Assembly (NCBI RefSeq): GCF_022565775.1
Contig: NZ_JAIUMC010000006.1
Location: 1 to 64,000, forward strand
DNA: 64,000 bases
Source: Natronospirillum sp.
GTDB taxonomy: Bacteria; Pseudomonadota; Gammaproteobacteria; Pseudomonadales; Natronospirillaceae
Direction of reading: 5' to 3'
Below, one piece after another: positions 51,414-53,176 of this stretch (positions within the stretch are counted from its first letter, which is position 1; each line of letters starts with the position of its first letter). The position numbers and the translations under genes are program-made. The notes beneath the pieces are model-generated. The model searched no databases, was not told the DNA's origin, and saw only the letters and a program-made list of their open reading frames with translations.

Positions 51414-51737
51414 TCACTTTCGCGACCGGAGCGCGGCTTCATGGGCGCTTCTTGCCCACTGGGCGGCCAGTTCGAGGTCGTCCATGATTTCCTCGTGTGC
51501 CTGATAGTAGGACATCTTCATCAGCTTGCCGTTCTTGTTGTATTCGAACGGGCCCAGCCCTAGCTGTTCAAAGTCAGGCTTGTTGATCGCATCTACCTTC
51601 AGGTAGAGGGTGTTGTCGGCCACCAGGCCGAACATGACGCCGTCGTGATACAGGCCATAGCCGCCAAACATCTTGCGAGCGCTCACCGGCCCAAAGTGCG
51701 CGAAGACTTCTTGCAGGTGTTCGATATATTCATTCAT
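51414..51737 (-). CDS. TfoX N-terminal domain protein
   Basis: HFGPVSARKMFGGYGLYHDGVMFGLVADNTLYLKVD. Confidence 0.9.
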   Translation of the reverse strand: MNEYIEHLQEVFAHFGPVSARKMFGGYGLYHDGVMFGLVADNTLYLKVDAINKPDFEQLGLGPFEYNKNGKLMKMSYYQAHEEIMDDLELAAQWARSAHEAALRSRK

Positions 51738-51826
51738 GATTCACGACTCCGAAGCAATCACATAGCGCGCGCTGCGTCCGCCACCCGGCAACTGCGCGGG
51801 TGGGCTGAATTGTCATCCCAGCTCAC

Positions 51827-52291
51827 TTATCCGGTGATGGCTCTGAGACTGGTCAGCGTTTCCTGGCAGGCGCGCGCTGCTTCCCTGCCCTTTTTGACAA
51901 AATGCTCCCTGAAATACTGCAGGTGCTCATCATGCTCGTGAAAATGATGCGGCGTCAGTACCACACTGAATACCGGTACTTCGGTATCAAGCTGAGCACG
52001 CATCAGGCCATCGACTACCGCCTGAGCCACAAAATCATGCCGGTAGATGCCGCCGTCCACCACCAGAGCACAGGCAATGATGGCGTCATAACGGCCCGTC
52101 TGGGCGAGCAGCTTGGCATGCAGCGGGATTTCATAGGCACCTGGCACTCGGATGTGTTCAACCAGAACATCAGTGCCGGTAAGCTTAAGTTCGGTTTCTA
52201 TGGTGGTGCTGGCCTGATTGACAATATCGGCGTGCCAGGACGCCGAAATCACGGCCACAGAGGTGTTGCGGGTATTGGTAGACTGATTCAT
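51827..52291 (-). CDS. ribH: 6,7-dimethyl-8-ribityllumazine synthase, RibH2-like
   Basis: SASWHADIVNQA...RVPGAYEIPLHAKLLAQTGRYDAIIACALVVDGGIYRHDFVAQAVVDGLM...VLTPHHFHEHDEH; start re-assigned to MNQSTN. Confidence 0.92.
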   Translation of the reverse strand: MNQSTNTRNTSVAVISASWHADIVNQASTTIETELKLTGTDVLVEHIRVPGAYEIPLHAKLLAQTGRYDAIIACALVVDGGIYRHDFVAQAVVDGLMRAQLDTEVPVFSVVLTPHHFHEHDEHLQYFREHFVKKGREAARACQETLTSLRAITG

Positions 52292-52389
52292 GGGTTTCCT
52301 TGCAAGTCGCAATGACATTGGTTGACCAGAATCAGGGCGCGCGAGTACGCAACAACGACCGCGCAAGCGCGGCAATTATCAGGTGGTTC

Positions 52390-52456
52390 GCGATCTCTTT
52401 CATCCTGACTACGTCAGATACCGCCGGTGGGGAATTTCACCCCGCCCTGAGAACGC
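52390..52456 (-). promoter_or_regulatory. Internally deleted FMN riboswitch (RFN element): P1-P2-P6 retained, P3-P5 absent
   Basis: Minus strand GCGTTCTCAGGGCGGGGTGAAATTCCCCACCGGCGGTA-TCTGACGTAGTCAGGATGAAAGAGATCGC: canonical 5' RFN half fused to the canonical AGTCxGGATGRRAGA 3' end; 99-165 nt upstream of ribH. Confidence 0.8.
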
Positions 52457-52481
52457 TGCCGGCATTGAGCCGGACGACCGG

Positions 52482-52487
52482 AATTAT
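52482..52487 (-). promoter_or_regulatory. Candidate -10 box TATAAT for the ribH leader
   Basis: TATAAT on the minus strand 26 nt before the RFN remnant, overlapping the stop codon of the upstream HAD gene; no good -35 seen. Confidence 0.3.
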
Positions 52488-53152
52488 ACCTGAAAATCTT
52501 CGCAACGCACTGCCAGCCAGTCCTTCGGCGAGCGGAACCAGTGCCCGGGCGACTCTGACTGCAGCTCTTCAACAGAGCCATATCCCCACAGCACCGCACC
52601 ACCCACAATGTCATTTCTGCGGGCTGCCTCCAGGTCTACCGCACGGTCCCCAATCATCAGGGCACTACCAGTCAGTCGCCCGTCCTCCCGCATGGCTGCA
52701 ATCTGCTGCCACTTCTCGATGCCGACGTCCCCACCGTCCACAAAGTTGAGCAGGTGTGCCAGTTCGAAGCGCTCAAGGATGCGCTCAGCAAAATCCCTGC
52801 GTTTGGACGTACAAACTGCCATTCTTGTGCCGCGTTCATACAAGGTTTCAAGCACCTCTTTCACACCCGGATACAGCGTATTCTCCGCGAACCCGATCTC
52901 CGCATAGCGCTCTCTGTATTTCGCAACCAGCTCAAGCACTTCAGCCTGCGACTCGGTCCCGGTAATCCGCGCGAACGACGTATCCAGCGGCGGGCCGATG
53001 CAGGGGCCAATCTGATCATTGCTCAGGGGCTCGTAACCAAAGTGAGTGAGCGCATAGTTGAAGGAGCGACCAATGCCCAGAATCGGGTCGCTGATGGTTC
53101 CATCGAGATCGAAAAGATAAAGGTCGTAACTCACTGTCGTTGCATCGTTCAT
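52484..53152 (-). CDS. HAD-family hydrolase (phosphoglycolate phosphatase-like)
   Basis: YLFDLDGTISDPILGI, CTSKRRDFAERIL, MIGDRAVDLEAARRN. Start placed at MNDATT. Confidence 0.88.
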   Translation of the reverse strand: MNDATTVSYDLYLFDLDGTISDPILGIGRSFNYALTHFGYEPLSNDQIGPCIGPPLDTSFARITGTESQAEVLELVAKYRERYAEIGFAENTLYPGVKEVLETLYERGTRMAVCTSKRRDFAERILERFELAHLLNFVDGGDVGIEKWQQIAAMREDGRLTGSALMIGDRAVDLEAARRNDIVGGAVLWGYGSVEELQSESPGHWFRSPKDWLAVRCEDFQV

Positions 53153-53176
53153 GTCGGGCACCACTCTATCCCTCAG

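What the first reader, a model, noticed from the sequence alone, without database searches (positions are those of the whole stretch)
52390..52456. A half-size FMN riboswitch: P1, P2 and P6 kept, P3-P5 lost, upstream of ribH2
Seen directly: the minus strand reads GCGTTCTCAGGGCGGGGTGAAATTCCCCACCGGCGGTA followed at once by TCTGACGTAGTCAGGATGAAAGAGATCGC. The first 38 nt fit the canonical 5' RFN half, and AGTCAGGATGAAAGAGA fits the canonical 3' end. P1 still pairs (GCGTTCTC with GAGATCGC, one mismatch), P2 is intact, and CTGAC-GTA-GTCAG is a P6-like hairpin. The middle (AGCCCGCGAGC..., P3-P5, about 80-90 nt in E. coli ribB) is missing. Established: in the FMN riboswitch structure the aptamer is two similar peripheral domains, P2-P6 and P3-P5, so one whole domain is gone here. 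Inference: this is either a decayed riboswitch or a minimal variant with altered ligand specificity or ligand-independent activity.
Basis: partly seen in the sequence, partly recalled or inferred. Interest (0 to 1): 0.8.

Follow-up and report, generated by a model that had tools for sequence, protein, structure and literature searches.

The report
FMN riboswitch missing its middle half
Upstream of a vitamin B2 synthesis gene in a Natronospirillum-like bacterium, the usual RNA sensor for the coenzyme FMN has lost its middle half, including most of the FMN-binding pocket, while the on/off switch it controlled is intact; it is most likely a sensor that has gone blind, seen so far in one genome only.

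Summary
At 52388-52458 (minus) lies an RFN element with P1, P2 and the 3' end intact and P3-P5 absent (RF00050, 46.4 bits, E 1.8e-8, below the 66.2-bit gathering score), upstream of an intact ribH2. Against the only held congener (Natronospirillum operosum, full-length, 108 bits) the aptamer is 80 nt shorter. No other half-size copy turned up in the family, in 368 Gammaproteobacteria, 398 Pseudomonadota, IMG/VR, or 5,395 E. coli ribB leaders. The deletion removes FMN contacts A48, A49, U61, G62 and changes G84/A85. GCCCUGAUUC can pair with UCAGGGC of the aptamer (ON) or with the start codon AUGAAUCAG (OFF), as in about 35 other ribH2 leaders. Best reading: an internal deletion made an FMN-blind leader, probably leaving RibH2 translation permitted at all FMN levels, like roseoflavin-selected laboratory mutants. 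It is recent or still constrained; one genome cannot tell. A ligand-binding minimal variant is not excluded, but its only support is a C-to-A change completing the P6 hairpin, to which folding gave no special rank (43 of 213).

The parts
52388..52458 (-). half-size FMN riboswitch aptamer (RFN element without P3-P5)
   Evidence: cmscan RF00050 46.4 bits, E 1.8e-8, model 1-138 with 76 positions skipped
52449..52456 (-). P1 5' strand GCGUUCUC
   Evidence: sequence; identical in N. operosum
52390..52397 (-). P1 3' strand GAGAUCGC
   Evidence: sequence; identical in N. operosum
52426..52446 (-). P2 hairpin
   Evidence: MFE fold and Rfam alignment
52405..52417 (-). rebuilt P6 hairpin CUGAC-GUA-GUCAG spanning the deletion junction
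   Evidence: MFE fold; C to A at a position that is C in 78 of 78 other aptamers
52444..52450 (-). UCAGGGC, anti-sequestor strand inside the aptamer (end of P1 and J1/2)
   Evidence: 7-bp complement of GCCCUGA
52326..52338 (-). switch strand GCCCUGAUUCUGG; pairs with UCAGGGC or with the start codon region
   Evidence: CCCTGATTC in 42 of 79 distinct leaders
52283..52291 (-). start codon region AUGAAUCAG, sequestered by CUGAUUC in the OFF form
   Evidence: 36 of 42 leaders with the switch strand have GAATCAG downstream, nearly always as ATGAATCAG
52297..52301 (-). Shine-Dalgarno-like AAGGA
   Evidence: sequence
51827..52291 (-). ribH2, 6,7-dimethyl-8-ribityllumazine synthase (second paralogue)
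   Evidence: NF009084 232 bits, PF00885 122.8 bits; RibH1 is at G000:C2:121261-121674
52483..52488 (-). TATAAT, possible -10 box overlapping the stop codon of the upstream HAD gene
   Evidence: read from the sequence only; not supported by a -35 in the scan

Best explanation
An FMN riboswitch of a proteobacterial translational type lost P3-P5 by an internal deletion in this lineage. Shown: the remaining aptamer parts, the loss of most FMN-contacting positions, and the intact downstream switch. Inferred: the element can no longer bind FMN in the known way, so the leader no longer responds to FMN. In relatives, FMN-stabilised P1 frees GCCCUGAUUC to cover the start codon (OFF); without FMN, UCAGGGC pairs with GCCCUGA and the start codon is open (ON). 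With no FMN to stabilise P1, RibH2 translation most likely stays permitted at all FMN levels. The loss is either recent or the remnant is still held by selection as a fixed leader structure.
For: RF00050 alignment with a single large gap. N. operosum and the 15 other family genomes with an RFN over the cut-off have elements of 148-242 nt, and 31 of the 32 matching genomes in the order sample are over the cut-off. FMN stacks between A48 and A85 and contacts A99, U61, G62, G84, G10, G11 (PMC10809319; PMC7573352); A48, A49, U61, G62 are deleted and the G84/A85 positions read A/U. Switch strand and start-codon complement are exact here and in about 35 other leaders. The anti-sequestor (ON) form is relatively most favourable in this leader among 35 leaders, though only just (1.0 against 1.3 kcal/mol for N. 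operosum). RibH2 is intact and under purifying selection. Laboratory precedent: roseoflavin-resistant strains carry RFN deletions or point mutations and overproduce riboflavin (PMC1570366; PMC10116070; PMC5449655).
Against: Retained parts differ from N. operosum at 2 of about 65 positions while four-fold sites of ribH2 differ at 29 of 60, so a long period of free decay is excluded; the only substitution at a family-invariant retained site completes the P6 hairpin. The folding balance is sensitive to the assumed transcript start (anti-sequestor 0.52 or 0.19), so ON rather than OFF is not established. Wilt et al. argue that P3/P4 stacking destabilises P1 without FMN, so losing P3-P5 could instead stabilise P1 and lock the switch OFF.
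Confidence: 0.62

Rival explanations
1. A working minimal variant: P1, P2 and the rebuilt P6 form a three-way junction that binds another ligand, or FMN in another way, and still drives the intact platform.
For: P1, P2, platform and start codon are all intact; the C to A change completes CUGAC/GUCAG at a site that is C in 78 of 78 others and raises the isolated hairpin from -3.2 to -4.9 kcal/mol.
Against: Found once only: none in 368 Gammaproteobacteria, 398 Pseudomonadota, IMG/VR or plasmids by exact pattern or BLAST. Over the whole 71 nt the C to A change ranks 43 of 213 possible substitutions, and quasi-palindrome correction during replication would give the same change without selection. 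Two of five conserved L6 positions are lost.
Confidence: 0.12
2. Locked OFF: without P3/P4 stacking, P1/P6 stack constitutively, the switch strand covers the start codon and ribH2 is nearly silent, RibH1 doing the work.
For: In the apo aptamer P3/P4 stacking competes with P1/P6 (PMC7573352); a second lumazine synthase exists; sequestor pairing dominates the free fold in one computation (0.80).
Against: P1 itself has a probability of only about 0.02 in the free fold; ribH2 is intact and clearly under purifying selection (75% amino acid identity with 48% of four-fold sites changed), which a long-silenced gene would not be.
Confidence: 0.13
3. Assembly or library artefact at a stable GC-rich hairpin region of a draft genome.
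For: The genome is a 173-contig draft, 91% complete; no second genome of the species is held and no reads are available.
Against: The junction carries sequence that is not a simple join of the congener's ends, plus a substitution at an otherwise invariant site; the site is inside a contig with intact genes on both sides; no second copy of the missing part is found in the genome.
Confidence: 0.1

Closest known systems
FMN riboswitch aptamer (RFN element), Rfam RF00050
   Same: P1, P2, J1/2, J2/3 and the 3' GGAUGAAAGAGA segment; gene context (ribH2)
   Different: P3, P4, P5 and their junctions absent; P6 rebuilt; score below the gathering cut-off
Full-length ribH2 leader of Natronospirillum operosum (L003/L104)
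   Same: P1 arms identical, P2 the same stem, same TATCTG after GGCGGT, same switch strand and ATGAATCAG start
   Different: has P3-P5; aptamer 80 nt longer; lies in a different chromosomal neighbourhood
Roseoflavin-selected RFN deletion mutants of lactic acid bacteria (PMC1570366, PMC5449655, PMC10116070)
   Same: loss of aptamer sequence, expected loss of FMN control
   Different: laboratory selection, rib-operon leaders assumed to work by transcription termination, different deletion limits

Membership tests
FMN riboswitch (RF00050) | covariance-model score at or above the curated gathering score (66.2 bits) | tested here: not met
   46.4 bits
FMN riboswitch (RF00050) | six-helix junction P1-P6 | tested here: not met
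   P3-P5 absent; 76 model positions skipped
FMN riboswitch (RF00050) | FMN pocket residues A48, U61, G62, G84, A85, A99, G10, G11, G32 | tested here: not met
   only the J1/2, J2/3 and J6/1 residues (G10, G11, G32, A99) remain by alignment; F. nucleatum sequence recalled, its numbering agrees with residues named in the papers
FMN riboswitch (RF00050) | common descent with RFN elements of ribH2 leaders | tested here: met
   E 1.8e-8, same gene, near-identical retained halves
FMN riboswitch (RF00050) | binds FMN | not testable with these tools
   needs in-line probing or calorimetry
Translational ribH2/RFN expression platform | switch strand complementary both to J1/2 and to the start codon region | tested here: met
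   UCAGGGC / GCCCUGAUUC / AUGAAUCAG, exact

The most novel reading that the evidence does not exclude
A natural three-helix (P1-P2-P6) derivative of the FMN aptamer that still works as a switch, with a different ligand or none, on an unchanged expression platform.
Probability: 0.12. Interest if true: 0.75.

Novelty: new variant of a known kind. Interest (0 to 1): 0.38.

Why it matters
Natural loss of exactly one of the two pseudo-symmetric domains of the FMN aptamer is a ready-made experiment: it tests whether P2-P6 alone can fold, bind anything, or set the P1 switch without P3-P5, and whether wild bacteria escape FMN control the way roseoflavin-selected strains do. As a single genome it is a curiosity until a second strain is seen.

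Tried and rejected
Chance match: rejected by E 1.8e-8 and gene context. A conserved class of half-size RFN elements: rejected for the sampled genomes. Common natural deletion in E. coli ribB: all 5,395 matching genomes cover at least 80% of the query. Selection for the P6-completing change shown by folding energy: not supported (rank 43 of 213). Intrinsic terminator platform: none found. Synteny as a way to date the deletion: ribH2 is in a different neighbourhood in N. operosum, so it did not help. Exact join of the deletion: no single-step parse from the N. operosum sequence was found by eye. Literature search for natural truncated FMN riboswitches found none in the open-access library.

Full report
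Observation. The minus strand of 52388-52458 reads CAGCGTTCTCAGGGCGGGGTGAAATTCCCCACCGGCGGTATCTGACGTAGTCAGGATGAAAGAGATCGCGA. Against all Rfam families in 5 kb the only match is RF00050, 46.4 bits, E 1.8e-8, aligned over the full model with one gap of 76 positions. Nothing in the window reaches a gathering score, and no other credible RFN or missing middle part is found in the genome (second match E 1.14, 14.9 bits). The element is therefore a true homologue of the FMN riboswitch with its middle removed.

Setting. The downstream gene, 51827-52291 minus, is a complete 6,7-dimethyl-8-ribityllumazine synthase of the RibH2 type (NF009084, 232 bits against a cut-off of 160). A second lumazine synthase, RibH1, lies on another contig. 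The organism is a congener of Natronospirillum operosum: the genus neighbour G001 carries a contig of the same length (1386867) as NZ_SRMF01000001.1, which gave the best ribH2 hit, 73%.

Comparison. 80 ribH2 loci were fetched. In 79 distinct aptamers whose two halves could be located, including this one, the measured lengths run from 127 to 295 nt for the others and 69 nt here, with nothing between. In the family, 16 genomes have an element over the cut-off and only this genome has a short one. In the order sample, 31 of 32 matching genomes are over the cut-off. An exact pattern for the half-size form found only this locus in 369 Gammaproteobacteria and in 399 Pseudomonadota genomes (overlapping samples; many genomes have no RFN, so the effective sample is smaller) and nothing in IMG/VR. 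Of 5,426 E. coli genomes 5,395 have a ribB RFN match and all of these cover at least 80% of it, so internal deletions are rare in nature where they can be counted.

What is lost. In the F. nucleatum aptamer FMN lies between A48 and A85, pairs with A99 and touches U61, G62, G84, G10, G11 and G32 (PMC10809319; PMC7573352). By alignment A48, A49, U61 and G62 are deleted and the two residues before P6 (G84, A85) read A and U; G10, G11, G32 and A99 remain (the F. nucleatum sequence was recalled and its numbering checked against the residues named in the papers). Known-mode FMN binding is therefore not expected.

What is kept. The retained 5' part matches N. operosum at all but one of 42 positions, including TATCTG, which belongs to P3 there; the retained 3' part at all but one of 23. 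Four-fold degenerate sites of ribH2 differ at 29 of 60 between the two (corrected distance 0.78, about 0.39 per branch). Some 25 changes would be expected in 65 unconstrained sites over the whole branch, so the deletion is either recent (inference: within roughly the last quarter of the branch) or the remnant is still constrained. One genome cannot separate these.

P6. CUGAC-GUA-GUCAG is formed by the joined ends. Its 3' arm carries an A where 78 of 78 other aptamers have C; with C the hairpin has a mismatch and an alternative hairpin is preferred. This looks compensatory, but across the 71 nt the change ranks only 43 of 213 for stability, and replication-templated correction of an imperfect palindrome would give it too. 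L6 in most of the family reads T-N-A-N-A-G-T; here ACGTAGT, two conserved positions changed.

Expression platform. Constrained folding showed that GCCCUGAUUC (52329-52338) can pair with UCAGGGC inside the aptamer or, through CUGAUUC, with AUGAAUCAG at the start codon. Among 79 distinct leaders 42 carry CCCTGATTC and 36 of these have GAATCAG 23-39 nt further on, nearly always as ATGAATCAG, in Gamma-, Beta- and Alphaproteobacteria. Leaders with UCGGGGC keep a G-U pair. This is a mutually exclusive translational switch of the sequestor/anti-sequestor kind described for riboswitches in general (PMC2258182); I did not find this exact pairing in the papers read. All three strands are exact in the window. 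No intrinsic terminator was found.

Mechanism. In relatives FMN is expected to stabilise P1, which uses up the strand next to J1/2 and leaves GCCCUGAUUC free to close the start codon. Here the pocket is gone, so the leader should ignore FMN. Folding puts this leader at the ON-leaning end of 35 leaders, but the numbers shift with the assumed 5' end, and one structural study implies that losing P3/P4 stacking might favour P1 and hence OFF. RibH2 is intact and under purifying selection, which fits continued expression. Laboratory strains selected with roseoflavin lose FMN control through RFN point mutations and deletions, a close functional parallel.

Verdict. A real deletion derivative of a known riboswitch; not a member of RF00050 by score, architecture or pocket, but descended from it and attached to an intact copy of its switch. 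Ordinary loss of sensing is the best account; a functional minimal variant remains possible at about one in eight.

Noticed in passing
52283-52338 (-) and L003, L004, L010, L043, L065 and others: A three-strand translational switch (UCAGGGC / GCCCUGAUUC / AUGAAUCAG) is shared by about 36 ribH2 leaders; it ties the first codons Met-Asn-Gln of RibH2 to RNA pairing.
   Followed up: partly
52483-52488 (-): A perfect TATAAT overlaps the stop codon of the upstream HAD-family gene, 25 nt before the aptamer.
   Followed up: no
52375-52403 (-): A promoter-like ATGAAA-17-GATAAT lies across the 3' end of the aptamer; consensus match only.
   Followed up: no
51414-53164: The ribH2 neighbourhood is not shared with N. 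operosum: the TfoX_N ortholog there is 90% identical but about 710 kb from its ribH2, and the HAD gene has no close ortholog there (best 29%).
   Followed up: partly
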